Shown here: in pieces, positions 34,599-55,860 of the stretch
Layout of the letters: every line of letters starts with the position of its first letter
Numbering within the stretch: the first letter of the stretch is position 1
Source: Actinernus sp. WN-2022
Lineage: Eukaryota; Cnidaria; Anthozoa; Actiniaria; Actinernidae
DNA: 64,000 nt
Direction: 5' to 3'
Assembly: GCA_030867875.1 (NCBI GenBank)
Contig: JAOWCC010001634.1
Coordinates: forward strand, 132,718,807 to 132,782,806
Translations under genes and position numbers: made by a program
Notes under the pieces: generated by a model
Databases searched by the model: none
Seen by the model: only the letters and a program-made list of their open reading frames with translations
What the model was told of the DNA's origin: nothing

Positions 34599-34654
34599 AA
34601 GAAATGTATCTTTTTGCGGATATTAAAAACATGTCCACCAGAAATGCTATTTTG

Positions 34655-34896
34655 TTATCCTTGTGGTTTCGCACCGCCAAGGTGCACGAGACAAGGTCCA
34701 CGATAGGCCACCGTAATGTAGGTATTAGTAGTACAAGACCTCACTCGTAACATGCACCTGTTGTCGTATGTCGTATCATCTGATCCACACACCGGGTTAT
34801 CAATCTTTGGACAAAACTTCGGACAGACACACTTCGCAGAGATGCCCTTGGAAACACACTTGGCGTAATTATGACACAAAGTGTAGATGCATGGAT
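34655..34896 (-). CDS. Follistatin-like/Kazal exon A1, probable terminal exon
   Basis: The acceptor is CATCTAG before ATCCATGC (34897-34899). The exon encodes DPCIYTLCHNYAKC, CVCPKFCPKIDNPVCGSD, TTYDNRCMLRVRSC and YRGPC, ten cysteines in the follistatin-module order. The residue two after the sixth cysteine, the usual Kazal P1 position, is Lys. Unlike copies A2 and A3, it lacks the GTGAGA donor: at about 34692 the sequence becomes unrelated and the frame runs through LVHLGGAKPQG to a TAA at 34655. An AATAAA-type signal lies downstream on the minus strand near 34548. It may be a chimeric last exon or a broken copy. Confidence 0.72.
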
Positions 34897-36120
34897 CTAG
34901 ATGACGAAGAGTTCCATATATCTTGTTAGCACTAGTTTAAATTCAAATCATTTTTTCTTTCGCTAGACGTTATTTACGTCACTAGAAAGTTTATGAAAAC
35001 ACGTTTGGCATGCATGAGCCAGTTACAGTACTTTATTGAAATCAAAGATGTCAAAAGTGATAGTTTTTGCCTGATAATAGTTTTAGGATATACCACACAA
35101 GTGAATAGTGCCTTTCGCGCGCTCTGATTGGCTACTCAAGTTCGGAATATCCAGCATTAGTACATACCAATTCGATAACCTTTGTTAGATCGAGCAATCT
35201 GATTGGTTCACATTCATAGGATAATGAGTCATATTCAAAACCGAAACATGGGATAATGTCGGCCACTTCATGTTTCAGCGTAAACTCATGGTTTGCTAGA
35301 GCTTCAGACGGTAAAGTTTCAAAAATCTAGGACAATGCTATTTCAAAAGATGCAGGAAACTTGGTATTAACGGTTTTCGAAAGTAATGGAACTACTTAAA
35401 AATATTTTGATCACTGTTTTACATTAAATAATTCAGCAGAGAATTGTAAATTTGCTTTTATAGAAATTAAGAGTACTTCGGCTTCTCTATCAGTGTTAAC
35501 AGAAATAAACCTTCTAAATCAATATTTGAGTCATAAAAACGGAAAAACGGAATAAATGTATTTGAAAGTTGTAATTATCAGAAAGAAAACGATCGCTCAC
35601 CCATCGTTTCCACCTGAAAGTAGAGTACTCAGCCAGTGTCTCATGCCCTAATTTCGTAAATCCTGACCGCCGAATTGCTCTTCTCTCCCTTATTCCAAGT
35701 GCTACTAATTCCAAATACCACTTAAACTCACCATCCACAACAACTTTCCATTGAAGAAAACTGGAATTTTCGCCGGACACAATTCTGTCAGCACATGGCC
35801 TGCCTTGATTTCGGGCGGCTTGTTTACAATTTTGCTCCCAGTTAAACATTTCATTGATTGGTCTTTAGCCTCGATCGCTGGTAAAACAACTTTGACTAGT
35901 TTTACGGCACTTTTAGAACTGTAAACACTTCAAGCTCGTGTGCTTTGACTCGCCTTTTCCTTGAACAGAATGGCCTGAGTCGAGTTTGTCGTAACAGGCG
36001 CGTGCGTGAACTTTGGCACGTTTCGTATATAATAAAGCGGGACAATTTGTCTACACTCTTTTGGTAGTATTTTTATGGCTATTTTGAGGTTACCTCGTTG
36101 GTACATACTAAAACAATATT

Positions 36121-36488
36121 AGGGACCTTACGCAACCAGGACGGCGACGGCAGTGACGACCGGAGGTAGAAACTTGTTTTCTCCCGAAATCTGGTGTTTA
36201 CTAGTTCCTTTATTCGCTTTTAATTACGTTTCACATCCAGGTCTTCGAAAAATATGATAAGCATAAAGTTTTTCTCATGCCGAACGTTAAAACAGAGTGA
36301 TTTACTTTGTTATTTTTGCGTTCTCTTGTAAACGTAAACTTTGGAGTTTTTTACGTTGTTTTTCCAGACAACGGTTGAAATGTAGGCGACTGCGTGCATT
36401 TTCACGTGCAGTAGTTGTACTTTGTAATTAAGGCTATTGTTTTATGCCGTCGTCCTTGACGTTGCCGTCCTGGTTGCGTAAGGTCCCT
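36121..36488. mobile_element. MITE, copy 1, about 40-bp inverted ends
   Basis: AGGGACCTTACGCAACCAGG at one end and its reverse complement at the other. The second copy is at 42432-42797 in the same place of unit 2, so it inserted before the duplication. A 3-bp ATT or 2-bp TA duplication is possible; it is ambiguous by eye. Confidence 0.8.
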
Positions 36489-36610
36489 ATTATTCTACTC
36501 AGTTATCGGTGACTAGTGATGGTTCGTGCCACTATTCATGAACTCCACATTGGGGAATAATTGTTAATTATGTTTAGCACTGGTGGCAGCGTAATCTCAG
36601 ATTTACTCAC

Positions 36611-36832
36611 CTATACATTTCCCCGAGCTAAACACATTAATATCCTTGTGTTTTGTACAGGCAACAGCCTTCAGTCGGCATTCGCTTTCGTAGGGTTTGC
36701 CGTCCGTGCCGCACACCGGTTTGTTGGTTACCGCACAGAGGGTTCTGCACACACATTGGGCTTTGCCATTGACTGATCGGCACTTAGAGTGTGGACGAAC
36801 TGCACTGCATGGGCCAGCAACAAAGCAGGGAT
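36611..36832 (-). CDS. Follistatin-like/Kazal exon B1
   Basis: A 222-bp exon with a CAG acceptor (36833-36835) and ATAG/GTGAGT donor (GT at 36610-36609). It encodes DPCFVAGPCSAVRPHSKC, VNGKAQCVCRTLCAV, NKPVCGTDGKPYESEC and RLKAVACTKHKD, with ten cysteines. The P1-equivalent residue is Val, suggesting elastase-like or no inhibitory specificity. It follows C1 and precedes A1 in the transcript. Confidence 0.82.
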
Positions 36833-37049
36833 CTGAACCATAACCAGTAAATAACCAGTTAACTATTCAGTACTGACTGTACTCTCAATGATAACTGAAA
36901 CTATGAAAATATGAGAAAATACGAACGAATTTTACTGAACGAAAGTGCTAGAGCGGATTTCGTATGAGTGACAGGTTACGCCAACGACTTACGGCACGGT
37001 AGACGGGACAAATCGAACCGTATTTACAGACTTTGAAGAACCATGTAAA

Positions 37050-37378
37050 ATGTCTGGAAAATGTTTCTAAAATGTTTCTAAAATGTCTGTAAAATGTTTG
37101 TAAAATGTCTGTAAGATATGTATTTTTTTTGTCAAATGTCTGGAAAATGTTTGTAAAATGTCTGTAAAATGTTTGTAAAATGTTTGTGAAATGTCTGTAA
37201 AATGTCTGTAAAATGTCTGTAAAATGTCTGTAAAATATCTGTAAAATGTTTGTAAAATGTTTGTAATATGTTTGTAAATGTTTGTAAAATGTTTGTCAAA
37301 TGTCTGTAAAATGTTTGTAAAATGTTTGTAATATGTTTGTAAATGTTTGTAAATCTTTATAAAATGGTTGTAAAATGC
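37050..37378. repeat. 11-bp minisatellite in the intron upstream of B1
   Basis: Tandem TGTAAAATGTT/TGTAAAATGTC units. On the minus strand the unit has no stop in any frame, which gives false open frames of the YKHFTNILQTF type. Confidence 0.9.
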
Positions 37379-37545
37379 ACATGTCATACAAACATGTTAC
37401 AGACTTTTACATAGTTATTCTCAAACTCATTAATAATTCATGGTGTGACCATGACGAGTATTTAGAAATACAGCCAAATACAGCTCGCATTTCAAGACTT
37501 TTAGATCGCTAATGTTATCATTAAAGTGGAGATTGAGAGGCCATG

Positions 37546-37692
37546 TAAACACTCAGAGCTTGTTTTAGAAGCGAGTTTCTAAATACAGTGAGGATGGGTT
37601 AAAAAACCTCGCCTTTGCCTCGGTTTTCAACCCCCTCTCACTGTATTTAGAAATCGCTTCTAAAACAATTGCAACTCTGAGTGTTTTACATA
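37546..37692. mobile_element. Hairpin MITE, copy 1
   Basis: TTTTAGAAGCGAGTTTCTAA pairs with TTAGAAATCGCTTCTAAAA across a short CCTCGCC-containing loop. The equivalent in unit 2 is at 44427-44572. Confidence 0.75.
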
Positions 37693-37757
37693 TTACTTCG
37701 AAGTCCTGCAATACGGTCGTTAAAAGAATTAACTTTTAGTTTCTCCTATCCACTTAC

Positions 37758-37976
37758 TGTTACAGCCTCTTTTGCTGTTAATAGTAATTGTTTTGTTATT
37801 CTTGCACGCGGCTTGCTCCATCAAACACAGGTTGTCATACATGACGTCATCCGAGCCGCATACCAGATTCTGTACGTCATCAGGACAGTTTAAGTTACAT
37901 CCACATGTAGGTTGGCCTTTCTTCGCTTCACACGTGGAGTACGGTGGGAATTTGCAGATGTGGTTTAAACATGGAT
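37758..37976 (-). CDS. Follistatin-like/Kazal exon C1
   Basis: A 219-bp exon with a TTGCAG acceptor and GTAAGT donor. It encodes DPCLNHICKFPPYSTCEAKK, QPTCGCNLNCPDDVQNLVCG and MYDNLCLMEQAAC, with ten cysteines. The P1-equivalent residue is Asp, which is unusual for a classical inhibitor of trypsin- or chymotrypsin-like enzymes. The sister copy C2 differs by one residue. Confidence 0.82.
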
Positions 37977-37979
37977 CTG

Positions 37980-40541
37980 CAAGGTGAGAAGCTAAGCAAT
38001 TACAACTCAAGATGTGAAATATTCAACGTAAAACCATTTACAAAATAACTTCTTCATTCATTTTTTAGAGTTTAGAACAGTTGTTCATGAAAATCTAGCA
38101 ACATCTGTACCCACAATGTATGTTTTTAGAATTTTTTGAGAGGAATTGCTTTAAACTTCACCAGTGAACAAGAGTATACTTTATTATGACGTCATATATT
38201 TTTGAAAACGTCTCTTAGAAAATAAATATTAGTATTTTTCGGGTTTTAACGAAGAAATATACTTATTGTACACTGAATAGGCTCAATATGGTCTTTTATA
38301 TATTTCTTCAATCTAGAAAGTATAATTTAATTCAGACCCATGACGTCAGAAAATGTGACGTCACAGGAAACTTAAGTTCTTAATAACTCTGCAAATATTT
38401 ATTTTAGAGACTTCAAAATTGCGGCATTCAAAAATATATATTTACTAGCAGGGACCCGCAGAACAAATCAACAAATATGATAATAGTAACATATAGTCCA
38501 GCCGGCTAACCGGCTACTCACACAAATACAAATCAATGGTGCCAGATTGTGTACTGGAGGTTTTAGCGTGTTGATGTTTTCGAAGTTGTAGTTTGATAAA
38601 AAAGGCAATAATATCTTACGGATCTCAGTTAATTTGTCAAACCAAAACTGACGGTCGCCTGAGGCAGCTCAAGTCATGAATTCGTGTGACGAAAACAAAT
38701 ATGGTCGCCGAAATATCATTGATCGAAGCAGGAAAACGGAATAAAAACAATAATGAAAAGCCAAGTTATTTGAATGTCTGGTTGTAGTGAGTTTCTAGTC
38801 TGAAGTCTTGAAGAGCGTACGATAGTTGGGCGAGGAAAACGTGTTTTTTTTTATTATCTAAGAACACAGGAAACTACAGAGAACAGACATGGACAACATA
38901 TCTTGCTCTTCGACACACCATAGAGTTGTAAGATAAAAAACAGTCTTTTCCACGGACAACATTTCTAACTGTGTTTGAATAGCTGGTCTTACCTCATTCG
39001 GTCGTTTGACTTCGGCCGCTTCGCCTGGCGATAGGTTTTCCTAAAACATTCCCGTAAACTCGATGGCTTGCTCGCCTAGGTTTTTCCTAAAACAGATTCC
39101 CGTAAACTCGATGGCTTGCTCGTCCAGGTTTTTCCTAAAACGTATTCCCGTAAACTCGATGGCTTGCTCGCCCAACTAAGTGTAGAACTTGAGAAAAATC
39201 ATTTATTTTTAAGACATAGAGCAACGTTTCGCATGATTCGTCGTCTTCGTTGGGATACCTGTGGCCGTCACTTTTGGGCGCCATTTTCGGACGCACGCGC
39301 GCGTCCTCCATATTAGGATATCGATCGAGGGAGCCTGGGAAAGAGCGTTACACACACACACACTTAGCGTATTATTAGAATAAATGATAAGATAAGATGT
39401 TGTTGTAATAACATGCTTTGTTGTAAACGTATACGTAACGAAGATTTGACCTTAAAAGGAGTCGTTCATCATGACGTCACAGCAACGTCAATATACAAAC
39501 CCGATTAAACTTGAAGACGTAATTTCATATTAATATTAACTTACCAAAATTTCGTTAAATTTGAGGTCGAATTAAATTTGTTTTGCCAGTTTATACATTT
39601 TTCGCACGCTCAACGTGAGCGATTTCATGGTCATTTATGCCCAACGTGATCATAGACTTTTATTTGCTCGCGCGCTAAATAAAGCCTTCAGGTCAAACGG
39701 TTTCAACTTAACATTGCTACATTTGTCGAAGCCGACCTTGAAATAGTTTGAAATGAAGATTTTGCCATTTCTAGGACGCACAACGGGCCAAGGAGAGACC
39801 ACAAGGACTAGTTATAAAAGAGTTGTGATAGACATCGAAAATAAGCAGCCTGGATCGAATAAAGTACGCCTGGCATAGAAATTACAGACTTCTGCGGCGA
39901 TACACTAATGAGATACACTAACTTTACTTGTCATATTTTAGTAGATTGTCTGTATAACGGTATTTATAAAAGCTTAAAAAATAGTTGTAATAAAGCCTAA
40001 TTTTATTTATTCATTCTGTCTGACGATTTACTCCTATTTCCAAAACTCTCCAAAAGATTATTAAAGTCAATAATTGAGTGCATGTAAGTACCTGAGCAAC
40101 ATCAGATTTCAAAAGATATACTTTAGTATATCTCGTACGGTGTTCGCATGTATGAGGGGATCAAATCCAATAGGAAAACGCCTGGGGTAACAAATCCACT
40201 AGTGGATATAGTCCGGGAGGACCATATTCTCTAGTGGATTTAGTCCAGGGGGACCACCACTGGGGGACCAAACCACTGTGACAGTTTTGAGAGCCGGAAA
40301 ACAATTGCTCCATAGCCCTGATTTCCAAGTTATTGTGAAAATGAAACCGTATTTTGTCCCTGTTTAATTATGCCGAATCGTCTATAACCCGGAATTCGAC
40401 ATATTTTTACGAGAAACCGGAACCGGAAATTGGAATTAGGTTCAAAACCGGATCCGGTACGGCCGCACATATATTCCGTCATAATCTTTTATACAGAAAA
40501 TATTGGAGAAAGGAAAAATATATTATTATTTCTTATCTCAC
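37980..40541. other. Long intron between exons A2 and C1
   Basis: Non-coding; duplicated as 44855-47444. It holds a 48-bp tandem repeat (39041-39172), a short CA run near 39350-39362, and CCACTAGTGGAT palindromes near 40198-40240. Short open frames here are shadows of repeats. Confidence 0.6.
39041..39172. repeat. 48-bp tandem repeat, about 2.8 copies (copy in unit 1)
   Basis: The unit contains CCCGTAAACTCGATGGCTTG and CTCGCCTAGGTTTTTCC. 48 is a multiple of three, and the minus strand reads as 16-residue repeats (GEQAIEFTG), but both duplicates are intronic and the frame is not bounded by splice signals. Confidence 0.8.
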
Positions 40542-40757
40542 CTTTCTTCTGGCAAGGTCCACGCGAGGCCACCGTAATGTAGGTATTAGTAGTACAAGAC
40601 CTCACTCGTAACATGCACCTGTTGTCGTATGTCGTATCATCTGATCCACACACCGGGTTATCAATCTTTGGACAAAACTTCGGACAGACACACTTCACAG
40701 AGATGCCTTTGGACACACACTTGGCGTAATTATGACACGAAGTGTAGGTGCATGGAT
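40542..40757 (-). CDS. Follistatin-like/Kazal exon A2
   Basis: A 216-bp exon with acceptor CTAG before ATCCATGC and donor AAAG/GTGAGA. It encodes DPCTYTSCHNYAKC, CVCPKFCPKIDNPVCGSD, TYDNRCMLRVRSC and ASRGPCQKK, with ten cysteines and a Lys at the P1-equivalent position, as in A1 and A3. Its close match to A1 and A3, including flanking introns, shows recent duplication. Confidence 0.85.
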
Positions 40758-40851
40758 CTAGATGACGAAGAGATCATCTCATTAATTAATGTCATTAGAC
40801 TACAGCCAATGATGATGATTTCCACATTGCATAATGTTTCATCGATAAAAT

Positions 40852-41134
40852 CATAGTTAATAGAGTGGAATGGTTAGGAAACCCGGCAAACTTCAAAAGG
40901 GCTAACAAAGGCGCTGCGATTTAGGTTGGAAGGGAATAAGACAAAAGATTGTGCACGATCATAGTTCATTAGTGTTCCCTGAACGACTGAACTCACACGT
41001 TTCTATTGGCTGATTGACTAACATGTTGGAATTTCTATTGTGTTTTGTGCACGGTAGTGGTCGAAAAAAGCTAACAAAGACCTATAACAAAGAAGGTCCC
41101 TGAGTTTCCTAACCATTCCACTCTATTAACTATG
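40852..41134. mobile_element. 283-bp MITE with clean insertion site, unit 2 only
   Basis: Inverted ends of about 31 bp (CATAGTTAATAGAGTGGAAT) and a 7-bp direct duplication ATAAAAT on each side (40845-40851 and 41135-41141); an 8-bp reading, GATAAAAT, is also possible. Unit 3 has the uninterrupted site, CATCGATAAAATAGATC, near 47747-47762. A 7-8-bp duplication suggests hAT-like or a related superfamily. Confidence 0.85.
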
Positions 41135-42431
41135 ATAAAATAGATCTACGCTTTGGGTAGGAAAATGACCCAATATAAGGAACTTGACCCCACAATGTAA
41201 GGGAAACGATCCCATATAAGGGAAATGACAATAGGATAAGCAGAAAGAATAGTTCCACATATCTTGTTAGCACTAGTGTAAATACAAATCATTTTTTCTT
41301 TCGTTAAACAATATTTACATCCCTACAAAGTTTATGAAAACAAGTTTGGCATGCATGAGCCAGTTACAGTACTTTATTGAAATCAAAGATGTCCAAAGTG
41401 ATAGTTTTTTGCCTGATAATAGTTTTAGTATACACCACACAAGTGAATAGTGCCTTTCGCGCGCTCTGATTGGCTACTCAAGTTCGGAATATCCAGCATT
41501 AGTACATACCAACTCCATAACCTTTGTTAGATCGAGCAATCTGATTGGTTCACATTCATAGGATAATGAGTCATATTCACCACCGAAACATGGGATAATG
41601 TCGGCCACTTCATGTTTCAGCGTAAACTCATGGCTTGCTAGAGCTTCAGACGGTAAAGTTTCAAAAATCTAGGACAATGCTATTTCAAAAGATGCAGGAA
41701 ACTTGGTATTAACGGTTTTCGAAAGTAATGGAACTACTTGAAAATATTTTGATCACTGTATTACATTAAATAATTCAGCAGAGAATTGTAAATTTGCTTT
41801 TATAAATATTAAGAGTACTTCGGCTTCTCTGTCAGTGTTAACAGAAATAAACCTTCTAAATCAATATTTGAATAAATGTATTTGAAAGTTGTAGTTATCA
41901 GAAAGAAAACGATCGCTCACCCTTCGTTTCCACCTGAAAGTAGAGTACTCAGCCAGTGTCTCATGCACTAATTTCGTAAATCCTGATCGCCGAATTGCTC
42001 TTCTGTCCCTTATTCCAAGTGCTACTAATTCCAAATACCATGCACTTAAACTCACCATCCACAACAACTTTCCATTCATTTGAAGAAAACTGGAATTTTC
42101 GCCGGACACAATTCTGTCAGCACATGGCCTGCCTTGATTTCGGGCGTCTTGTTTACAATTCTGCTCATTGATTGGTCTTTAGCCTCGAACGCTGGTAAAA
42201 CAACTTTGACTAGTTTTACGGCACTTTTAGAACTGTACGCACTTCAAGCTCGTGTGCTTTGACTCGCCTTTTCCTTGAACAGAATGGCCTGAGTCGAGTT
42301 TGTCGTAACAGGCGCGTGCGTGAACTTTGGCACGTTTCGTAATAAAGCGGGACAATTTGTCAACACTCTTTTGGTAGGATTTTTATGGCTATTTTGAGGT
42401 TACCTCGTTGGTATATACTAAAACAATATTA

Positions 42432-42797
42432 GGGACCTTACGCAACCAGGACGGCGACGGCAGTGACGACGGGAGGTAGAAAATTGTTTATTCCCGAAAT
42501 CTGGTGTTTACTAGTTCCTTTATTCGCTTTTAATTACGTTTCACATCCAGGACTTCGAAAAATATGATAAGCATAAAGTTTTTCTCATGCCGAACGAAAA
42601 ACAGAGTGATTTACTTTGTTATTTTTGCGTTCTCTTGTAAACGTAAACTTTGGAGTTTTTTACGTTGTTTTTCCAGACAACGGTTGAAATGTAGGCGACT
42701 GCGTGCATTTTCACGTGCAGTAGTTGTACTTTGTAATTAAGGCTATTGTTTTATGCCGTCGTCCTTGACGTTGCCGTCCTGGTTGCGTAAGGTCCCT
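42432..42797. mobile_element. MITE, copy 2 (duplicate of 36121-36488)
   Basis: Same inverted ends and position relative to exons B and A as in unit 1. Confidence 0.8.
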
Positions 42798-42916
42798 ATT
42801 ATTCTCCTCAGTTATCGGTGACTAGTGGTGGTTCGTGCCACTATTCAACTCCACATTGGGGAATAATTGTTAATTATGTTTAGCACTGGTGGCAGCGTAA
42901 TCTCAGATTTACACCC

Positions 42917-43138
42917 CTATACATTTCCCCGAGCTAAACACATTAATATCCTTGTTTTTTGTACAGGCAACAGCCTTCAGTCGGCATTCGCTTTCGTAGG
43001 GTTTGCCGTCCGTGTCGCACACCGGTTTGTTGGATACCGCACAGAGGGTTCTGCACACACATTGGGCTTTGCAATTGACTGATCGGCACTTAGAGTGTGG
43101 ACGAACTGCACTGCATGGGCCAGCAACAAAGCAGGGAT
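42917..43138 (-). CDS. Follistatin-like/Kazal exon B2, degrading
   Basis: Aligned with B1 over 222 bp, but with three damaging differences. The donor GTGAGT has become GGGTGT after ATAG, so the GT is lost at the normal position. A Gly in VNGKAQC is Cys, giving eleven cysteines. The Gly of the conserved CG(S/T)D motif is Asp (CDTDG). The P1-equivalent residue remains Val. Because the exon is symmetrical, skipping it would keep the frame. It may be a pseudo-exon. Confidence 0.7.
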
Positions 43139-43334
43139 CTGAACCATAACCAGTAAATAACCAGTTAACTATTCAGTACTGACTGTACTCTCAATGATAA
43201 CTGAAACTATGAAAATATGAACGGATTTTACTGAAGGAAAGTGTAGAGCGGATTTCGTATGAATGACAGGTTACGCCAACGACTTACGGCACGGTAGACT
43301 GGACAAATCGAACCGTATTTACAGACTTTGAAGA

Positions 43335-43680
43335 ACCATGTAAAACGTCTGGAAAATGTTTGTAAAATGTTTGTAAAATGTTTGTAAAATGTTTGTAAAA
43401 TGTTTGTAAAATGTTCGTAAAATGTTTGTAAAATGTCTGTAAAATGTTTGTAAAATGTCTGTAAAATGTCTGTAAAATATCTGTAAAATGTTTGTAAAAT
43501 GTTTGTTAAATGTTTGTAAAATGTCTGTAAAATGTTTGTAAAATATCTGTAAAATGTTTGTAAAATGTTTGTAAAATGTCTGTAAAATGTCTGTAAAATG
43601 TTTGTAAAATGTTTGTAAAATGTTTGTAAAATGTTTGTAAAATGTTTGTAAAATGTTTGTAAAATGTTTGTAAAATGTTT
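43335..43680. repeat. 11-bp minisatellite, unit 2, first part
   Basis: TGTAAAATGTT/TGTAAAATGTC in about 30 copies, interrupted at 43682-43957 by a MITE and resuming after it. The long minus-strand open frame here is produced by the repeat. Confidence 0.9.
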
Positions 43681-43681
43681 G

Positions 43682-43957
43682 AATAGAGTGGAATGGTTAG
43701 GAAAGCCGGCAAACTTCAAAAGGGCTAACAAAGGCGCTGCGATTTAGGTTGGAAGGGGGTAAGACAAAAGATTGTGCACGATCATAGTTCATTAGCGTTC
43801 CCTGAACGACTGAACTCACACGTTTCTATTGGCTGATTGACTAACATGTTGGAATTTCTATTGTGTTTTGTGCACGGTAGTGGTCGAAAAAAGCTAACAA
43901 AGACCTATAACAAAGAAGGTCCCTGAGTTTCCTAACCATTCCACTCTATTAACTATG
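43682..43957. mobile_element. Second copy of the 283-bp MITE, inside the 11-bp array
   Basis: Matches 40852-41134 nearly throughout but lacks the first few bases of the left end (starts AATAGAGTGG). It splits the minisatellite. Confidence 0.85.
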
Positions 43958-44228
43958 GTAAAATGTTGTAAAATGTCTGTAAAATGTCTGTAAAATGTTT
44001 GTAAAATGTTCGTAAAATGTTTGTACAATGTTTGTAAAATGTCTGTAAAATGTTTGTAAAATGTTTGTAAAATGTTTGTAAAATGTTTGTAAAATGTTTG
44101 TAAAATGTTTGTAAAATGTCTGTAAAATGTTTGTAAAATGTCTGTAAAATGTTCGTAAAATGTTCGTAAAATGTTTGTAAAATGTTTGTACAATGTTTTT
44201 AAAATGTTTTTAAAATCTCTGTAAAATG
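43958..44228. repeat. 11-bp minisatellite, unit 2, second part
   Basis: Continuation of the same array after the MITE, with more TTT and CTG variants towards 44228. Confidence 0.9.
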
Positions 44229-44426
44229 CCCATGTCTTACAAACATTTTACAACCTTTAACATAGTTCTTCTCAAACTCATTAATAATTCATGGTGTGAA
44301 TACAATAGAAATCATGACCATGACGAGTATTTAGAAATACAGCCAAATACAGCTCGCATTTCAAGACTTTTAAATTTAGATCGCTAATGTTATCATTAAA
44401 GTGGAGTTTGAGAGTCCATGTAAACA

Positions 44427-44572
44427 CTTAGAGCTTGTTTTAGAAGCGAGTTTCTAAATACAGTGAGGAGGGGTTAAAAAAACCTCGCCTTTGCCTCGGT
44501 TTTCAACCCCCTCTCACTGTATTTAGAAATCGCTTCTAAAACAATTGCAACTCTGAGTGTTTTACATATTAC
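44427..44572. mobile_element. Hairpin MITE, copy 2
   Basis: Duplicate of 37546-37692 in the equivalent intron. Confidence 0.75.
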
Positions 44573-44632
44573 TTCGAAGTCCTGCAATACGGTCGTTAAA
44601 AGAATTAACTTTTAGTTTCTCCTACCACTTAC

Positions 44633-44851
44633 TGTTACAGCCTCTTTTGCTGTTAATAGTAATTGTTTTGTTATTCTTGCACGCGGCTTGCTCCATCAAA
44701 CACAGGTTGTCATACATGACGTCATCCGAGCCGCACACCAGATTCTGTACGTCATCAGAACAGTTTAAGTTACATCCACATGTAGGTTGGCCTTTCTTCG
44801 CTTCACACGTGGAGTACGGTGGAAATTTGCAGATGTGGTTTAAACATGGAT
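44633..44851 (-). CDS. Follistatin-like/Kazal exon C2
   Basis: A 219-bp exon with the same acceptor and GTAAGT donor as C1. It encodes the same module with Ser for Pro after the sixth cysteine (NCSDDVQNLVCG). The P1-equivalent is again Asp. It lies between A3 and B2 in the transcript. Confidence 0.83.
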
Positions 44852-44854
44852 CTG

Positions 44855-47444
44855 CAAGGTGAGACGCTAAGCAATTACAACTCAAGATGTGAAATATTCA
44901 ACGTAAAACCATTTACAAAATAACTTCTTCATTCATCTTTTAGAGTTTAGAATAGTTGTTCATGAAAATCTAGCAATTTAAAGCATACATCTGTACCCAC
45001 AATCGTATGTTTTTAGAATTTTAAATTTTTGAGAGGAATTCCTTTAAAATTCACCAGTGAACAAGTTAGAGTATACCTCATTATGACGTCATATATTTTT
45101 GAAAACGTCTCTTAGAAAATAAATATGAGTATTTTTCGGGTTTTAACGAAGAAATGTCCTTATTGTACACTGAATAGGCTCAATATGGTCTTTTTTAGTT
45201 TTCTTCAATGTAGAAAGTATAATTTAATTCCGGCCCATGACGTCACAGGAAACTTAAGTTCTTAATACCTCTGCAAATATTTATTTTAGAGACTTCAAAA
45301 TTGCGGCATTCAAAAATATATATTTACTAGCAGGGACCCGCAGAACTTACAAGAAATCAACAAATATGATATAGTAACATAGTCTAGCCGGCTTAAATCA
45401 ATGGCGCCAGATTGTGTACTGGAGGTTTCAGCGTGTTGATGTTTTCGAAGTTGTAGTTTGATAAAAAAGGCAATAATATCTTACGGATCTCAGTTAATTT
45501 GTCAAACCGATGAACACAATTTTACGTATTGTCGAAAAAGTGCCAAAACTGACGGTCACCTGAGGCAGCTCAAGTCATGAATTCGTGTGACGAAAACAAA
45601 TATGGTTGCCGACATAGCATTGATCGAAGCGGGCAAACGGAATAAAAACAATAATGAAAAGCCAAGTTATTTGAATGTCTGGTTGTAGTGAGTTTCTGGT
45701 CTGAAGTCTTGAAGAGCGTACGATAGTTGGGCGAGGAAAAAGTTTTTTTTTTTAATATCTAAGAACACAGGAAACTACAGAGAACAGACATGGACAAAAT
45801 ATCTTGCTCTTCGACACACCATAGAGTTGTAAATAAAAAAATTGAACAGCCTTTTCCACGGACAACATTTCTAACTGTGTTTGAATACCTGGTATTACCT
45901 CATTCGGTCGTTTGAGTTCGGCCGCTTCTCCTGGCGATAGGTTTTCCTGAAACATTCCCGTAAACTCGATGGCTTGCTCGCCTAGGTTTTTCCTAAAACA
46001 GATTCCCGTAAATTCGATGGCTTGCTCGTCCAGGATTTTCCTAAAACGTATTCCCGTAAACTGGATGGCTTGCTCGCCCAACTAAGTTTAGAACTTGAGA
46101 AAACTCATTTCTTTTTAAAACATAGAGCAACGTTTCGCATGATTCGTCGTCTTCGTTGGGATACCTGTGGCCGTCACTTTTGGGCGCCATTTTCGGACGC
46201 ACGCGCGCGTCCTCCATATTAGGATATCGATCGAGGGAGCCTGGGAAAGAGCGTTACACACACACACACTTAGCGTATTATTAGAATAAATGATAAGATA
46301 AGATGTTGTTGTAATAACATGCTTTGTTGTAAACGTATACGTAACGAAGAATTTGACCTTAAAAGGAGTCGTTCATCATGACGTCACAGCAACGTCAATA
46401 TACAAACCCGATTAAACTTGAAGACGTAATTTCATATTAATATTAACTTACCAAAATTTCGTTAAATTTGAGGTCGAATTAAATTTGTTTTGCCAGTTTA
46501 TACATTTTTCGCACGTTCAACGTGAGCGATTTCATGGTCATTTATGCCCAACGTGATCATAGACTTTTATTTGCTCGCGCGCTAAATAAAGCCTTCAGGT
46601 CAAACGGTTTCAACTTAACATTGCTACATTTGTCGAAGCCGACCTTGAAATAGTTTGAAATGAAGATTTTGCCATTTCTAGGACGCACAACGGGCCAAGG
46701 AGAGACCACAAGGACTAGTTATAAAAGAGTTGTGATAGACATCGAAAATAAGCAGCCTGGATCGAATAAAGTACGCCTGGCATAGAAATTACAGACTTCT
46801 GCGGCGATACACTAATGAGATACACTAACTTTACTTGTCATATTTTAGTAGATTGTCTGTATAACGGTATTTATAAAAGCTTAAAAAATAGTTGTAATAA
46901 AGCCTAATTTTATTTATTCATTCTGTCTGACGATTTACTCCTATTTCCAAAACTCTCCAAAAGATTATTAAAGTCAATAATTGAGTGTAAGTACCTGAGC
47001 AACATCAGATTTCAAAAGATATACTTTAGTATATCTCGTACGGTATTCGCATGTATGAGGGGATCAAATCCACTAGGAAAACGCCTGGGGTAACAAATCC
47101 ACTAGTGGATATAGTCCGGGAGGACCATATTCTCTAGTGGATTTAGTCCAGGGGGACCACCACTGGGGGACCAAACCACTGTGACAGTTTTGAGAGCCGG
47201 AAAACAATTGCTCCATAGCCCTGATTTCCAGGTTATTGTGAAAATGAAACCGTATTTTGTCCCTGTTTAATTATGCGGAATCGTCTATAACCCGGAATTC
47301 GACATATTTTTACGAGAAACCGGAACCGGAAATTGGAATTAGGTTCAAAACCGGATCCGGTACGGCCGCACATATATTCCGTCATAATCTTTTAAACAGA
47401 AAACATTGGAAAAAGGAAAAATATATTATTATTTCTTATCTCAC
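44855..47444. other. Long intron between exons A3 and C2
   Basis: Duplicate of 37980-40541, with a second 48-bp repeat array at 45949-46080. No coding sequence. Confidence 0.6.
45949..46080. repeat. 48-bp tandem repeat (copy in unit 2)
   Basis: Duplicate of 39041-39172 with a few substitutions. Confidence 0.8.
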
Positions 47445-47660
47445 CTTTCTTCTGGCAAGGTCCACGCGAGGCCACCGTAATGTAGGTATTAGTAGTACAA
47501 GACCTCACTCGTAACACGCACCTGTTGCCGTATGTCGTATCATCTGATCCACACACCGGGTTATCAATCTTTGGACAAAACATCGGACAGACACACTTCA
47601 CAGAGATGCCTTTGGACACACACTTGGCGTAATTATGACACAAAGTGTAGGTGCATGGAT
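47445..47660 (-). CDS. Follistatin-like/Kazal exon A3
   Basis: A 216-bp exon with the same splice signals as A2. It encodes the A-type module with small changes (CVCPMFCPKIDNP, TTYGNRCVLRV). Ten cysteines and the Lys at the P1-equivalent site are kept. It follows exon D in the transcript. Confidence 0.85.
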
Positions 47661-48959
47661 CTAGATAACGAAGAGATCAACTCATTAATTAATGTCATTT
47701 TAGACTACAGCCAATGATTATTATTTCCACATTGCATAATGTTTCATCGATAAAATAGATCTACGCTTTGGGTAGGATGCCCTATAAGGAAAATGACCCA
47801 ATATAAGGAACTTGACCCCAGAATGTAAGGGAACTGATCCCATATAAGGGAAATGACAAAAGGATAAGCAGAAAGAATAGTTCCACATAACTTGTTAGTA
47901 GTCTACTTAGTGTAAATACAAATCATTTTTTCTTTCGTTAGACGTTATTTACGTCCCTAGAAAGTTTATGAAAACACGTTTGGCATGCATGAGCCAGTTA
48001 CAGTACTTTATTGAAATCAAAGATGTCCAAGGTGATAGTTTTTTGCCTGATAATAGTTTTAGTATATACCACACAAGTCAATAGTGCTTTTCGCGCGTTC
48101 TGATTCATTTGGCTACTCAAATTCGGAATATCCAGCATTAGTACATACCAACTAGGTAACCTTTGGTAGATCGAGCAATCTGATTGGTTCACATTTATAG
48201 GATAATGAGCCATATTCACCACTGAAACATGGGATAATGTCGGCCACATCATGTTTCAGTGTAAAGTCATGGTTTGCTAGAGCTTCAGACGGTAAAGTTT
48301 TAAAAATCTATTTCAAAAGATGCAGCCGAAAACTTGGTCTTAACGGTTTTCGAAAGTAATGGAACTACTTGAAAATGTTTTGATCACTGTTTTACATTAA
48401 ATAATTCAGCAGTGAATTGTAAATTCAGTAAATTTGCTTTTATAAATATTAAGAGTACTTCAGCTTGTCAGTCAGTGTTAACAGAAATAAACCTTCTAAA
48501 TCAATATTTGAGTCATAAAAACGGGAAAAACGGAATAAATGTATTTGAAAGTTATAATTATCAGAAAGAAAACGATCGCTCACCCTTCGTTTCCACCTGA
48601 AAGTAGCCGTACTCAGCCAGTGTCGCATGCACTAATTTAGTAAATCCTGACCGCCGAATTGCTCTTCTGTCCCTTATTCCAAGTGCTACTAATTCCAAAT
48701 ACCACTTAAATTTACCACCCACAACAACTTTCCATTGATTAAAAGAAAACTGGACACAATTCTGTCAGCACATGGCCTGCCTTGATTTCGGGCCGCTTGT
48801 TTACAATTTTTGTTTCCAGTTAAACATTTCATTGATTGGTCTTTAGCCTCGAACGCTGGTAAAACAACTTTGACAAGTTTTACGGCACTTTTAGAACTGT
48901 AAGCACTTCAAGCTCGTGTGCTTTGACTCGCCTTTTCCTTGAACAGAATGGCCTGAGTC
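47456..48959. repeat. Tandem segmental duplication, unit 3, truncated
   Basis: Homologous to the start of units 1 and 2 until GGCCTGAGTC at 48959, where similarity stops at a LINE end. Exons B and C are therefore missing from this unit. Confidence 0.8.
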
Positions 48960-49017
48960 TACACGACCCCACAAGCGGCAACGCTTAAACAATAAAGATC
49001 ATTGATTGATTGATTGA
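48960..49017 (+). mobile_element. LINE 3' end with (ATTG)n tail, extremely truncated
   Basis: CACGACCCCACAAGC, AATAAAG and ATTGATTGATTG match the tail at 8514-8580. ACACGACC flanks the fragment on the right and resembles its left end. Confidence 0.8.
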
Positions 49018-49216
49018 CACGACCATGTGCTTTCTTCTTCAATTTGCCCGCAAAGGCTTACGGGTTATACAACTCTCGCGGAGGTGCATGGGAGGTGCCC
49101 TATACACATGCCGCTTCTTTGTATGTTTCCTTTTAGGAACACGTGGTATAATATTATTATTCTATTCTTCATATGTTAAAACCTATTTCTAAGAATAAGT
49201 TGATCAGGGCTTCTCT

Positions 49217-49328
49217 TTTACAATTAGACTCCGAGCACGTGGTTTCTATCGGCTGGTATTTGACGAGGGAAGAAGCCCTGAGTCAACTATTACAGTCGAT
49301 AGAAACCAAGGGTGAGAAGTCTAATTGT
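49217..49328. repeat. Hairpin/MITE
   Basis: CAATTAGACT and GTGGTTTCTATCG pair with CGATAGAAACC and AGTCTAATTG around a spacer of about 50 bp. Confidence 0.65.
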
Positions 49329-49736
49329 TTTAGCATAACCAAGCTGCTGTTATTTCCAGTTTAGCCGTCGATTTATATTGAGATAAATCAGTAAAAACGT
49401 TGAAAAATAAGAAATTCTCCAGGTGATTTTGTCTGTACGTGCTAGCTCGTTGTTAGAAATTGTCATCTATGGATTGATAGACGATGCCCGCGTAGCCAAT
49501 CAAATTGCGAGTTTGCCGATAGTTGGTGGCTTGGTTATGCTAACATTGTTTATTAAGGACTATTTTGCATCCAGCACCGTCTTCCTCGTGAAATTCCTCA
49601 TATATGGCGTTAAAATATCAAAAGCACTCTATTGTTCTTTCAAGGTGTCGGCTAGAAATCTCTCGAGTTTGTTTGACTCTAGTAAAGGTTGAAAATGGTC
49701 CAATCACACAGGTATTTACTAGAGCTTTCTACCAAC
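49329..49736. other. Intron downstream of exon D
   Basis: No recognisable feature. The plus-strand open frame 49423-49692 has hydrophobic stretches but no domain. Confidence 0.4.
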
Positions 49737-49967
49737 CTCGACACGGCCTCTTCCTTGTGACATGTATCCTCTTTTTATTCCCCTTACAGTTCTCTCGTCT
49801 CAGTTCGCACTCGTTTGTATAGGTTTTTCCATCGGAACCACAGACGCGATCAAGAAGAAGAGGACAAATCCTGGGACAAATGGCGATGCACCGCGGACGT
49901 CCTCTAATAACTTTGCAGACGGATGGTAAGGCACACAGGACTGCTGCACATCCTCTGAGCTTGGGGC
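49737..49967 (-). CDS. Follistatin-like/Kazal exon D
   Basis: A 231-bp exon with acceptor TTCTAG before GCCCCAAG and donor CGAG/GTTGGT. It encodes RGCAAVLCALPSVC, RPRCIAICPRICPLLLDRVC, GSDGKTYTNECELRRENC and RKRPC, with ten cysteines. The P1-equivalent residue is Leu, which would favour chymotrypsin- or elastase-like proteases. It is not duplicated in this window. Confidence 0.82.
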
Positions 49968-50088
49968 CTAGAAGAAGAATAAAGGGCATTAGAGTGGATT
50001 TCGTATGAGTGGGCAGGTTACGCCATGCCTTGACAGTGAAATGGTTTTTTCCATTGTTTTCATCCTTCTGATCCAATCAAGTTACTAC

Positions 50089-50686
50089 GGTGGCCCGGTC
50101 AGGTTACCACGATACCACGATAGAGCCTATCGTGGTAACGTGGTTTTGAAAGAAATTCAAAACCACGTTACCACGTTAGAAAAGTCCGCGTAGAACTGGG
50201 CCTCGAAGCACATGGTTGACAAAATGGCGGAGGGGAAGGAAGAGAGTGAATCAAGCGGAGATTTTGCAGGAGATTTTCATCTGTTTGAAGATGAGGTTTG
50301 TTTTTACCATATATATAAGCTTACCACTGCCACTGGCAATTGATTAAAATTTAAAATGTCTCGGAATCGTTGAGGGATCATTGAAATAAACCGACAGCAG
50401 TATATAACATACTAACGATTCAAATGCGTTGATATCGGAAGATCTGGTGGAATCGGGATTCCCTGTTGACTACTGCTCGACGTAAACCATAAAACAAAAA
50501 GAAAACTGACGAAAAGACGAGGCTTTGCCATTATATCCGCCATTTTTGTCAACCATGTGATTCGAGGCCCAGTTCCACGCGGACTTTTCTAACGTGGCAA
50601 CGTGGTAACTTGGTTTTGAATATCGTTCAAAACCACGTTAGGTTCTGTCGTGGTGTCGTGGTAACGTGTAACCTGACCGGGCCACC
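50089..50686. mobile_element. Foldback element, 598 bp, with long inverted ends
   Basis: GGTGGCCCGGTCAGGTTACC starts the left arm and its reverse complement (with small indels) ends the right arm. The arms extend about 150 bp and share AAAACCACGTTA and CCGCGTAGAACTGGGCCTCG-type sequence. Non-coding middle. Confidence 0.8.
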
Positions 50687-50719
50687 GTAAGTTACAGTAC
50701 AGTTACGGTATAGAGCAAA

Positions 50720-51406
50720 TTTCTTATGAGTGAGACAAACTTCGGCATGTTCGTAGCCTTACCGTTAGAGCAGATTTCGTATGAGTGGGACAAACTACAG
50801 CACTGACTACAGCACGGTTACCGTACAGCATTTCGTAACATTGAAATGGTTTCCCGTTGTTTTTGTCCTGCTGATCCAATCAAATCACAGAAATACGGTA
50901 CAGCACGGTTACAGCACGGTTACGGACTGCCGTAGTTTGCATATCAAACAATTGTTGTCGTTCAGAGTAATATTTGGGCCTGACTAGATGCTAGCGAGGC
51001 ATACGCTCATCCTTTTCAAATTTCGCCATCGATTTTTTTAATCGCACTTCTTGTAGCCTACGTTGTATCCGCCTCTCTTCTGCCGGCTCGCTACACTTCC
51101 TGAACGTGTTCTAGCATTCGACGATCTGTCCTGCTTTCCAAATATGGAATATATTGACCATATATGGAATATCACAGGGAGCTCTCAGGAACGACACTTT
51201 TCTCAATAAATTGTTTGATATGGTCCCACTCATACGAAATCTGCTCTAGTAACCGCACTGTAACCGTGGTGTACCGTATCTCTGTAATTTGATTGGATCA
51301 ACAGGACAAAACCAATGTCACCATTTCAATGTCACTGCATGCCGTACAGTAACCGTGCCGTAGTCATTGCCGTAGTTTGTCTCACTCATAGGAAATCTGC
51401 CATAGC
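50720..51406. mobile_element. Nested inverted repeats with GATTTCGTATGAGTG ends
   Basis: AGAGCARATTTCKTATGAGTG occurs at about 50723 and 50767, and inverted at about 51226-51249 and 51383-51405. The arms include GGTTACAGCACGG-type sequence and a shared TGATCCAATCAAAT block. The same end motif occurs near 36951, 43249 and 49992. Confidence 0.65.
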
Positions 51407-51724
51407 TTCGTTCTTTTCTCAGTTTCTCGTATTCAATTACAGCCCACATGCTTCGTGATAGCGGCTGTAATATATTAACGAGTGACTTTCCAAACGACAA
51501 TGCAAGAACAACGGTATTACTCATTAAATAACTATTAATCGGTCTAGCGTTGCGCCGAATGACTCTTATACTGACTCATTTGGAATTCGAAGATGCGAAC
51601 CTTAAGTGAAGAATATTTTGATACAACACAATACTACACGCATACATATACACAACACATGCCACATACATACAAATACACGAATTATGATCAAAATGCA
51701 CCATATCACTGGAAAAATCGAACC

Positions 51725-52326
51725 ATTTACATACAGACTATGTAAAATGTCAGTCAAATGTTTGTAAATTAAATGAACAAATTTAGGAACATTTAGAAAA
51801 GTTATATCAATTTAGTACTCGGTAAAATGTTTGTAAAAATATCTGTAAATGTGTACATTCACAGATCAGACATTTTAAAACCATTTTAAAGACTTTTACA
51901 TAGTAAAATGTCTGTAAAATATTTCTAAAATGTTTGTAATATGTCTGGAAAATGTTTGTGAAATGTCTGTAAAATGTTTGTAAAATGTTTGTAAAATGTT
52001 TGTAAATGTTTGTAAAATGTTTGTATTTAATGTTTGTAAAATGTCTGTAAAATGTTTGTAAAATGTCTGTGAAATGTTTGTAAAATGTTGTAAAATGTTT
52101 GTGAAATGTCTGTAAAATGTTTGTGAAATGTTTGTAAAATGTTTGTAAAATGTTTGTAAAATGTTTGTAAAATGTTTGTAAAATGTTTGTAAAATGTTTG
52201 TAAAATGTTTGTAAAATGTTTGTAAAATGTTTGTAAAATGTTTGTAAAATGTTTGTAAAAATATCTGTAAATGTGTACATTTCACAGATCAGACATTTTA
52301 AAACCATTTTAAAGACTTTTTACATA
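51725..52326. repeat. 11-bp minisatellite between exons D and E, with duplicated flank
   Basis: The same TGTAAAATGTT family as in the B-side introns; the densest part is 51900-52260. A non-repeat module, ATATCTGTAAATGTGTACAT through ACTTTTACATAGT, occurs at 51836-51903 and again at 52257-52328, so an array plus flank was itself duplicated. Confidence 0.85.
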
Positions 52327-52369
52327 GTTCTTCACAATCTGTAAATGGCTCGATTTTGCCATTGCATAC

Positions 52370-52603
52370 TTGGAACTGGAAGTTGATTGCATGGACCATT
52401 CCTAGTGATGGTAATGTTGATATTCTTATTACAAGCGATTTTCCTCATCCTGCAGTCATTACGATAGGTCTTTCCATCAGACCCGCATACAGGATTAACT
52501 GTCGTCGTGCACGAAAACAATAGACATGTACACTTTCCTCTGGTGAAGATCTTTGTACATTTTGAATAAGGCGGTGACGTACAAGTTACATTCCTGCACG
52601 GGT
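52370..52603 (-). CDS. Follistatin-like/Kazal exon E
   Basis: Acceptor TTTTTTTCAG before ACCCGTGC. If donor CCAA/GTATGC is used, the exon is 234 bp and symmetrical like the others; otherwise the frame runs to a stop at 52332. It encodes DPCRNVTC, KCTKIFTRGKCTCLLFSC, VNPVCGSDGKTYRNDC and RKIACNKN, with ten cysteines. The P1-equivalent residue is Thr. It is the most 5' exon visible in the locus. Confidence 0.8.
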
Positions 52604-54640: not shown

Positions 54641-55860
54641 AACACCGGAATAACGGGACAGCTACTATGGAACCAAACACGTTGCATGGCAACGTGTTTG
54701 GTTTACTATGGAACACCGGAACATCAAAAATTAATAACAAAATTCCGGAACACCAGAACATCGCAAATTATTATTTTCCACTCGACTAAACTAGCACAGA
54801 GTAATAACAATATAAATGGCGACGATTTGTTAGCGATCGCTCAACGCTCGCGAGAAGGTCCTTTTAGTGGTAGAATTTAAATACAGCCTCGTTTCCAGTA
54901 ACATACTCCTATAGAAAGGGTTTCAATGACTGCTCGTCAGTTCACCACATGACGTACAACAAAGGAAACTATTTGTCTTTTAAAACAAAACTATACTCTG
55001 CAACACAAAGAACCGTAACCCAGAAAATAATGCATCAGTTCTACTACACCAAGAAATACCCGTCAATCTCCGTCTTTATACCGACGTATACAGCTGGATA
55101 ACACTTTATTGGGTAAGGAACTTGCTTCCTGTTTCCTTCCCTTCAGTGTTTTCGCGTAAAACGCTGAATTACTGTTCTTACTGTCCTACTAAATTATTGT
55201 CCTATTGATCTAACCCTTAAGGATAGGACAATTGCCAGACAGTAAAAATTACAACAAAATCCCAGCGCACGTAATTAAAAACAAGTTAGTAAAATATATA
55301 TTTAAACGTGTGTGTAAAGTGTTCTCTCTAACCGTGACGAGCTTTCTTTGAAACCCTTGCTATAGCTACTTCGTTTATACGAAGTAGAGACCGCACTTTA
55401 GTCCGGCCACAGGCAGCCCAAGCTCAAGTTACGAAAATATAAGGGTTTGTATGGGAGCGTAGCGAATCGAACTCGGTTTACTAGTCAGAAAACCTTGCCA
55501 CTGTGATGTCTTCTGTCATGTTTCTCTCCTTGTTGGGTGGTTTTAAGCTGATTTCAGCCGGGTTTTTTTTATATTTTCGTAACTTAGGCTTGGGTTGCCT
55601 GTGGTCCGGCCGCATGTTGTGATCACCAGTGTACTGAATCCAACGTTATCGCGAGCGCTGAGCGATCGCTAAATCATCTCCATTTACTCGATTGTTCTTA
55701 TTACTCTGTATTAATAGTTTTCGTCGAGTGAAAACACTTATTTGATGTTCCAGTCTTCCTGAATTTTAAAATTTATTTTTGATGTTCCGGTGTTCCGCTG
55801 TCCCTGTGTCCCTGTGTCCTTGTTTTACAACATGCCCATACGTCACCACATGTTTCGGCC
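54610..55860. mobile_element. Foldback element, about 1.25 kb, arms about 220 bp
   Basis: Left arm (about 54614-54855) and right arm (about 55645-55855) share GGCATGTTGTAAAAC, GGAACACCGGAACATCAAAA, CAGAGTAATAA and AGCGATCGCTCA in reverse complement. A 30-bp near-perfect palindrome (CCAAACACGTTGC core, 54671-54700) and a second foldback (55398-55612) lie inside. Confidence 0.8.
55398..55612. mobile_element. Nested foldback with CCGGCCACAGGCAGCC end
   Basis: CCGGCCACAGGCAGCCCAAG with AGTTACGAAAATATA pairs with TATATTTTCGTAACT and CTTGGGTTGCCTGTGG. CACAGGCAGCCC also occurs at about 57692 and 62971. Confidence 0.75.

What the first reader, a model, noticed from the sequence alone, without database searches (positions are those of the whole stretch)
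34655..52603. Expanded array of symmetrical-phase follistatin/Kazal exons
Nine single-module exons are visible. All eight internal ones are multiples of 3 (216, 219, 222, 231 or 234 bp) with phase 1 on both sides, and each has ten cysteines. Exon shuffling and duplication can therefore lengthen the protein without frame damage. Such a locus can generate a family of multi-headed inhibitors by unequal crossing-over or exon skipping.
Basis: partly seen in the sequence, partly recalled or inferred. Interest (0 to 1): 0.85.

Follow-up and report, generated by a model that had tools for sequence, protein, structure and literature searches.

The report
Sea-anemone multi-Kazal inhibitor gene
This is most of a gene for a secreted chain of protease-inhibitor modules in what looks like a deep-sea anemone; three of its modules were copied in tandem and one copy seems to be decaying, which is a known way for such genes to grow, though a longer and more uniform exon array lies elsewhere on the same chromosome.

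Summary
Nine exons, all on the MINUS strand, each hold one follistatin/Kazal (FS) module. All nine pass Pfam's Kazal_2 cut-off. One module was folded, and its best PDB matches are follistatin-type domains. Seven of the eight non-terminal exons have AG/GT sites, a length divisible by 3, phase 1 at both ends and ten cysteines. The exception is B2 (42917-43138): GG for GT at its donor, eleven cysteines, CDTDG for CGTDG. B2 is probably a dying exon; skipping it would keep the frame.

The nine are not independent. Order is X1 X2 | A3 C2 B2 | A2 C1 B1 | A1: a ~6.3-6.9 kb three-exon block in two copies plus a truncated third. The gene starts outside the window: a tenth, Kazal-only exon lies 13.8 kb upstream of X1. 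Relatives are 'agrin-like' and unnamed cnidarian poly-Kazal proteins, so this is a new member of a known kind.

The predicted growth by unequal crossing-over shows better elsewhere on the chromosome: 35 FS exons, mostly ~1,885 bp apart, 99.5% identical, with Thr/Pro-rich linker exons. No transcript was available.

The parts
52370..52603 (-). exon X1, FS/Kazal module, 234 nt, phase 1-1, 10 Cys; P1-like residue Thr
   Evidence: Pfam Kazal_2 44.2 bits; AG/GT sites
49737..49967 (-). exon X2, FS/Kazal module, 231 nt, phase 1-1, 10 Cys; weak donor GAG|GTTGGT; P1-like residue Leu
   Evidence: Kazal_2 45.5 bits
47445..47660 (-). exon A3, FS/Kazal module, 216 nt, phase 1-1, 10 Cys; P1-like residue Lys
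   Evidence: Kazal_2 37.8 bits
44633..44851 (-). exon C2, FS/Kazal module, 219 nt, phase 1-1, 10 Cys
   Evidence: Kazal_2 38.0 bits
42917..43138 (-). exon B2, apparently decayed copy of B1: donor GT reads GG, 11 Cys, CGTDG reads CDTDG; probably skipped
   Evidence: Kazal_2 33.8 bits
40542..40757 (-). exon A2, FS/Kazal module, 216 nt, phase 1-1, 10 Cys
   Evidence: Kazal_2 41.3 bits; AlphaFold model, mean pLDDT 89
37758..37976 (-). exon C1, FS/Kazal module, 219 nt, phase 1-1, 10 Cys
   Evidence: Kazal_2 40.1 bits
36611..36832 (-). exon B1, FS/Kazal module, 222 nt, phase 1-1, 10 Cys, intact donor; P1-like residue Val
   Evidence: Kazal_2 39.9 bits
34655..34896 (-). exon A1, FS/Kazal module ending in an in-frame stop; putative last exon, its end diverging from A2/A3 at the last Cys codon (34692)
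   Evidence: Kazal_2 43.4 bits
42296..48959 (-). tandem block copy (A3-C2-B2 with introns); boundaries approximate
   Evidence: self-BLAST: 41134-42295 v 47749-48959 87.0%; 37130-40851 v 43978-47756 93.5%
35982..42295 (-). tandem block copy (A2-C1-B1 with introns); boundaries approximate
   Evidence: 34906-37377 v 41247-43677 93.5%
34692..35981 (-). truncated third copy (intron and A1 up to its last Cys codon); boundaries approximate
   Evidence: 34906-35981 v 47875-48959 90.4%; 34692-34914 v 40553-40775 96.4%

Best explanation
The exons are the 3' part of one minus-strand gene for a secreted chain of FS/Kazal modules (nine inside the window, or eight if B2 is skipped, plus at least one upstream), most likely a multi-headed serine-protease inhibitor of a sea anemone. 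Shown: the exons, their sites and phases, the domain identity, the predicted fold of one module, and the block duplication. Inferred: that they are spliced together, secreted and inhibitory. The gene grew by tandem duplication of a three-exon block (A-C-B) with its introns. Because every modelled junction is in phase 1, adding or losing a block or an exon keeps the frame, which is why the damaged exon B2 could be tolerated. By position, the residues in the inhibitory loop (Lys in A, Leu in X2, Val in B, Thr in X1, Asp in C) suggest trypsin-like and elastase/chymotrypsin-like targets for A, X2 and B, and weak or no inhibition for C; this rule is recalled and was not assayed.
For: All nine match Kazal_2 above cut-off. 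A profile of the nine aligns over positions 1-68 or 2-69 of 69 to agrin, follistatin and FSTL3 chains. The model of A2 (pLDDT 89) has FSTL1, follistatin, FSTL3 and WFIKKN2 FS domains as its eight matches at E<=0.001. Sites and phases. Block duplication. tblastn with seven relatives over 204 kb (window plus 60 kb and 80 kb) finds one further Kazal place, a 150-nt, phase 1-1 exon on the same strand (recounted). No signal-peptide-like exon lies between X1 and A1 by the scan; upstream, an ab initio candidate MRSMRYRILLVLVLGNYVLFSEASV with TAG|GTGAGT in phase 1 lies 38 kb from X1. Relatives: poly-Kazal proteins of Dendronephthya, Actinostola, Nematostella, Actinia; a Nematostella one (P0059) begins with a signal-like sequence followed directly by Kazal modules. 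Kazal-type inhibitors are among protease inhibitors reported as more numerous in adult Nematostella mesoglea (PMC12549020, passages seen).
Against: No transcript. The X2 donor is weak. The signal-exon scan gave two sites in 45 kb, and by hydropathy alone the other one (54707-54761, inside the window, donor GTAAAC) ranks first; a control stretch of 45 kb gave one. The terminal exon A1 may be an accident of truncation, since its end departs from A2/A3 at the last Cys codon, near a dispersed repeat (34391-34601). B2 has an in-frame upstream GT (216 nt) that could rescue its splicing at the cost of the last cysteine. Synonymous and non-synonymous changes are too few to show selection: C1/C2 2 syn, 1 non; A2/A3 0 and 4; B1/B2 0 and 4; A1/A2 2.5 and 4.5; A1/A3 2.5 and 6.5. 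FOLN is not matched by Pfam.
Confidence: 0.8

Rival explanations
1. A degenerating gene: the block copies and A1 are relics of a locus that no longer makes protein, B2 being the first visible break.
For: B2 lost its donor and gained a cysteine; A1 is truncated; A2/A3 and B1/B2 differ only by non-synonymous changes; transposon ORFs and an 11-bp minisatellite lie around and within it.
Against: All nine frames are open and 8 of 9 keep ten cysteines although the block copies, mostly intron, differ by 6-13%; exon A is 95-96% alike; seven of eight splice pairs are AG/GT in phase 1.
Confidence: 0.15
2. Two or more genes rather than one: A1 or an inner A exon ends one transcript and a separate promoter starts another within the array.
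For: A1 carries its own stop; the start of the gene has not been fixed.
Against: No signal-peptide-like exon between X1 and A1 on this strand under the rules of the scan; compatible phases at every junction but B2's.
Confidence: 0.08
3. FS modules that bind growth factors or matrix, as in follistatin and agrin, rather than inhibiting proteases.
For: Best fold matches are follistatin-type domains; P1-like residues Asp and Thr in C and X1 are poor inhibitors by recalled rules.
Against: The loop between Kazal Cys 2 and Cys 3 has seven residues in A, B, X1 and X2, as in ovomucoid third domain (recalled), and the Kazal half also matches inhibitors of known structure such as rhodniin, a 48-residue elastase inhibitor (1y1b) and ovomucoid.
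Confidence: 0.3

Closest known systems
Cnidarian multi-Kazal proteins (P0003 Actinostola, hypothetical; P0026 Actinia tenebrosa, agrin-like; P0059 agrin isoform X2 and P0015 predicted protein, Nematostella; P0002 Dendronephthya, agrin-like)
   Same: Strings of FS/Kazal modules; 29-37% identity over 80-100% of the query. Actinostola P0003 also repeats a near-identical module, and the coral P0007 (Oculina) has near-identical Kazal repeats with Thr/Pro-rich linkers, so homogenised repeats are not unique to this genome (by eye).
   Different: Among the six read none has the modules A, B, C in the A-C-B block; exon structure of these relatives was not examined.
Agrin (8s9p and others)
   Same: Runs of FS modules; best PDB match by sequence.
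   Different: Agrin's NtA, SEA, EGF-type and laminin-G parts (named in PMC3927612, passages seen) were not seen: two agrin-family proteins annotated with laminin-G hit only Kazal places in 204 kb.
Blood-sucking-bug multi-Kazal inhibitors (infestin, brasiliensin)
   Same: Multi-headed Kazal chain in which exon duplication is the proposed mode of growth (PMC2653937, passages seen).
   Different: Seven and eight Kazal domains, believed to be cut into small inhibitors; without the FS half (recalled); a different animal.
C685:113.02-113.09 Mb array in the same genome
   Same: FS exon of 213 nt, phase 1-1, growth by tandem duplication.
   Different: 35 near-identical copies with Thr/Pro-rich linker exons; no such linkers found between the window's exons.

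Membership tests
Kazal-type module | Pfam Kazal_2 above curated cut-off | tested here: met
   9 of 9; Kazal_1 7 of 9
Kazal-type module | inhibits serine proteases | not testable with these tools
   needs expression and assay
Follistatin (FS) domain | ten cysteines, hairpin part followed by Kazal part | tested here: met
   8 of 9 exons have ten Cys, B2 has eleven; profile spans nearly all of follistatin-type chains
Follistatin (FS) domain | Pfam FOLN match for the N-terminal part | tested here: not met
   listed for 0 of 9 at E<=1; only weak sub-cut-off EGF matches in the three A exons
Follistatin (FS) domain | fold | tested here: met
   model of A2: all 8 PDB matches at E<=0.001 are FS-type domains; one module of nine tested
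Symmetrical exon-shuffling module (phase 1-1) | length multiple of 3 and phase 1 on both sides | tested here: met
   7 of 8 non-terminal exons; B2 fails by loss of its donor
Agrin | laminin-G and other C-terminal domains | tested here: not met
   tblastn (E<=0.01) of two agrin-family proteins annotated with laminin-G hits only Kazal places in 204 kb; more distant or diverged exons not excluded
Secreted protein | signal peptide | tested here: inconclusive
   two ab initio sites in 45 kb upstream, one in a control stretch
Single transcription unit | cDNA joining the exons | not testable with these tools
   no transcripts held

The most novel reading that the evidence does not exclude
In this animal Kazal genes grow as exon-level tandem arrays. 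Phase-symmetrical exon blocks (three exons in the window, short-Kazal and FS exons at 132.49 Mb, and a FS exon plus Thr/Pro linker exons repeated about 35 times at 113.02-113.09 Mb) expand and are homogenised by unequal crossing-over, giving giant poly-inhibitor proteins whose module number may vary between individuals, while exons with dead donors are carried along harmlessly.
Probability: 0.4. Interest if true: 0.6.

Novelty: new member of a known kind. Interest (0 to 1): 0.36.

Why it matters
The window gene is a clear example of how modular inhibitors lengthen, with a natural test of the frame-neutrality argument (exon B2). The same chromosome offers the process at several stages: a diverged block duplication here, and a nearly identical 35-exon array 20 Mb away beside a sister segment in which only two such exons were found. 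That makes exon-copy-number variation in a poly-inhibitor gene directly testable by long reads across individuals.

Tried and rejected
Thr/Pro-rich linker exons like those of the 113-Mb array were sought in the window on both strands; two chance-like hits, none between the nine exons. The pattern used there also misses the array's own 66-nt linker in most units, so a diverged linker is not excluded. A regular-expression scan of 204 kb found only the nine exons and missed the tenth, which tblastn then found (the total of 500 rows looked like a cap and was recounted query by query, same total and places). Genome-wide copies of modules A and B: the search did not complete, so whether A, B and C occur elsewhere is open. 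NCBIfam gave nothing for the two exons tried. A module tree (47 rows, 71 of 87 columns) is poorly resolved. It groups the copies of A, of B and of C, and puts X1 with two FS modules of the 132.49-Mb neighbour (96/92), but leaves deeper order open. For that tree near-copies of the array exon were dropped, only modules fitting a ten-cysteine pattern were taken, and only 5 of the 120 listed relatives were used. Filing it as agrin was rejected. Dating in years was not attempted: no rate for this animal.

Papers: PMC10598428, PMC2653937, PMC3927612, PMC12549020 and PMC3427181 were seen as passages; all others as search listings only. Literature searches listed no paper whose title or abstract start treats tandem FS/Kazal exon arrays in anemones; this is not proof of absence.
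Full report
SOURCE. The window lies at C685:132718807-132782806 of a genome of 1,390,003,549 bases in 1,772 contigs. The size agrees with the 1.39-Gbp genome of the deep-sea anemone Actinernus sp. (PMC10598428, passages seen), and the nearest protein relatives include several cnidarian ones. The species is therefore inferred, not given.

OBSERVATION. Nine exons on the minus strand each hold one module. All nine pass Kazal_2; seven pass Kazal_1; FOLN is listed for none at E<=1. The follistatin part is supported otherwise. A profile of the nine aligns along 68 of 69 positions to agrin, follistatin and follistatin-like chains. A model of A2 (nine-row alignment, mean pLDDT 89) has FS-type domains as all eight PDB matches with E<=0.001.

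B2. Compared with B1, B2 reads GG instead of GT at the donor. The next GTs downstream give 224 or 226 nt and break the frame; one upstream gives 216 nt, in frame, but cuts the codon of the last cysteine. B2 also carries a Gly-to-Cys change, making eleven cysteines, and a Gly-to-Asp change in the CGTDG motif. If B2 is skipped, C2 (ends in phase 1) joins A2 (starts in phase 1) without frame damage. That B2 differs from B1 by 0 synonymous and 4 non-synonymous changes is not proof of decay, because A2/A3 show the same 0 and 4.

ORIGIN BY BLOCK DUPLICATION. Self-comparison shows the order X1 X2 | A3 C2 B2 | A2 C1 B1 | A1. The repeated block spans introns and exons: 37130-40851 against 43978-47756 at 93.5%, 34906-37377 against 41247-43677 at 93.5%, 41134-42295 against 47749-48959 at 87.0%, 34906-35981 against 47875-48959 at 90.4%, and exon A (A1 against A2 and A3) at 96.4% and 95.1%. 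The third copy breaks off inside exon A1 at the codon of the last cysteine (34692), after which A1 runs into its own stop. An 11-bp minisatellite lies at 37044-37377, 43339-43681, 43958-44228 and 51903-52260, all between the exons. It might have served as a substrate for misalignment (inference).

GENE LIMITS. Seven relatives used in tblastn over 204 kb hit the nine exons and one more place: a 150-nt, phase 1-1, Kazal-only exon on the same strand at window coordinate 66407-66556, outside the window and 13.8 kb upstream of X1. It resembles three short Kazal exons of the neighbour locus at 132.493-132.502 Mb (40, 38 and 51% identity). There, on the plus strand, five FS exons beginning DPCR and three short Kazal exons were seen in the stretches held, mostly alternating. 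In the module tree X1 groups with two of those FS modules (96/92). So the window gene probably begins with the same kind of pair. A candidate signal-peptide exon lies at window coordinate 90667-90742; it ends in phase 1 and its last base fits the next exon. It is one of two sites in 45 kb; the other (54707-54761) has the higher hydropathy but would lie downstream of the 66.4-kb exon. A control stretch of the same size gave one site, and the stretch between X1 and A1 none. It is only a candidate.

THE SAME PROCESS ELSEWHERE. The Kazal_2 search of the genome scored the best 150 of 585 candidates, all 150 matching, so counts are lower bounds. On the same chromosome, 113.0226-113.0905 Mb holds 35 FS exons of 213 nt, all open, 1,881-1,887 bp apart except for two wider gaps of 4,009 and 3,561 bp. 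There are ten distinct DNA sequences and eight proteins among the 35. In the 32 regular units, mean pairwise identity is 99.5% in the exon and 99.3% in the rest. The 11 variants in the FS exon are 4 synonymous and 7 non-synonymous, so near-identity reflects recent copying or homogenisation, not strong constraint. Shared variants recur ten units apart: mean identity at lag 10 exceeds that at lags 2-9 and 11, and of the five units from 113050883 four are identical, in the 40 shared variable columns, to the units ten places on (from 113069735), the fifth differing at one column. This is expected of unequal crossing-over. Each unit also has a 66-nt Thr/Pro-rich exon (35 of 35) and a 48-nt one with a GT donor in 23 of 35 and a TT donor in 8 of 35; in 4 of 35 it was not found by the pattern. 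A dead donor is therefore carried along there too. These linker exons were read from the consensus by eye and are not backed by transcripts. A neighbouring segment that matches the 5' flank (98.9% over 1,272 bp) shows only two such exons in the stretch held, to 113.130 Mb. The unit number rests on the assembly and was not checked against reads.

MECHANISM. The most likely product is a secreted string of FS/Kazal heads acting as a multi-headed serine-protease inhibitor. The P1-like residues are Lys (A), Leu (X2), Val (B), Thr (X1) and Asp (C, with one extra residue in the loop) (sequence; the position rule is recalled). Several specificities in one chain are plausible; C may be a spacer. None of this was assayed.

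COMPARISON AND NOVELTY. Multi-Kazal proteins, many named agrin-like, are common in cnidarians and beyond (909 proteins at E<=0.001, 120 listed). The name reflects shared modules; confusion of this kind is discussed in PMC3927612 (passages). Growth of Kazal chains by exon duplication is in print (PMC2653937, passages), and near-identical Kazal repeats with Thr/Pro-rich linkers occur in a coral protein (P0007, by eye). The window gene is therefore a new member of a known kind, with one instructive detail (B2). The 35-unit array is the more surprising object, by its length and uniformity.

Noticed in passing
G000:C685:113022584-113090470 (L023-L030): 35 near-identical 213-nt FS/Kazal exons, mostly ~1,885 bp apart, with Thr/Pro-rich linker exons; higher-order repeats of ten units; a sister segment at 113.108 Mb shows only two such exons in the stretch held.
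   Followed up: partly
G000:C685:113034126-113067851 (8 of 35 units): The 48-nt linker exon has TT in place of its GT donor in eight units: a dead donor spread along the array.
   Followed up: partly
window coordinate 66407-66556, outside the window (L009): Probable tenth exon of the gene, Kazal only, 150 nt, phase 1-1.
   Followed up: yes
G000:C685:132493064-132502500 (L002, L004, L035): Neighbour locus, plus strand, with five FS exons beginning DPCR and three short Kazal exons seen, mostly alternating.
   Followed up: partly
37044-37377, 43339-43681, 43958-44228, 51903-52260: 11-bp minisatellite (TGTAAAATGTT) between the exons; it gives long repetitive open frames that are not genes.
   Followed up: no
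20744-22318 and 28490-29317: Reverse-transcriptase ORFs: RVT_1 with RNase H on the minus strand, and RVT_1 on the plus strand.
   Followed up: no
5886-6269: ISXO2-like transposase domain (DDE_Tnp_IS1595), plus strand.
   Followed up: no
G000:C398:23.44-24.31 Mb and C116: Ten Kazal exons with the same score (49.4 bits), some 24-40 kb apart and others much further, suggesting recent gene copies.
   Followed up: no
P0130, P0090, P0100 (Procambarus clarkii): Dipetalogastin gene annotated with isoform numbers up to X40, a possible case of extensive exon skipping in a multi-Kazal gene (names only).
   Followed up: no
P0007 (Oculina patagonica): Coral agrin-like protein with near-identical Kazal repeats joined by Thr/Pro-rich linkers, reminiscent of the 113-Mb array.
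   Followed up: no
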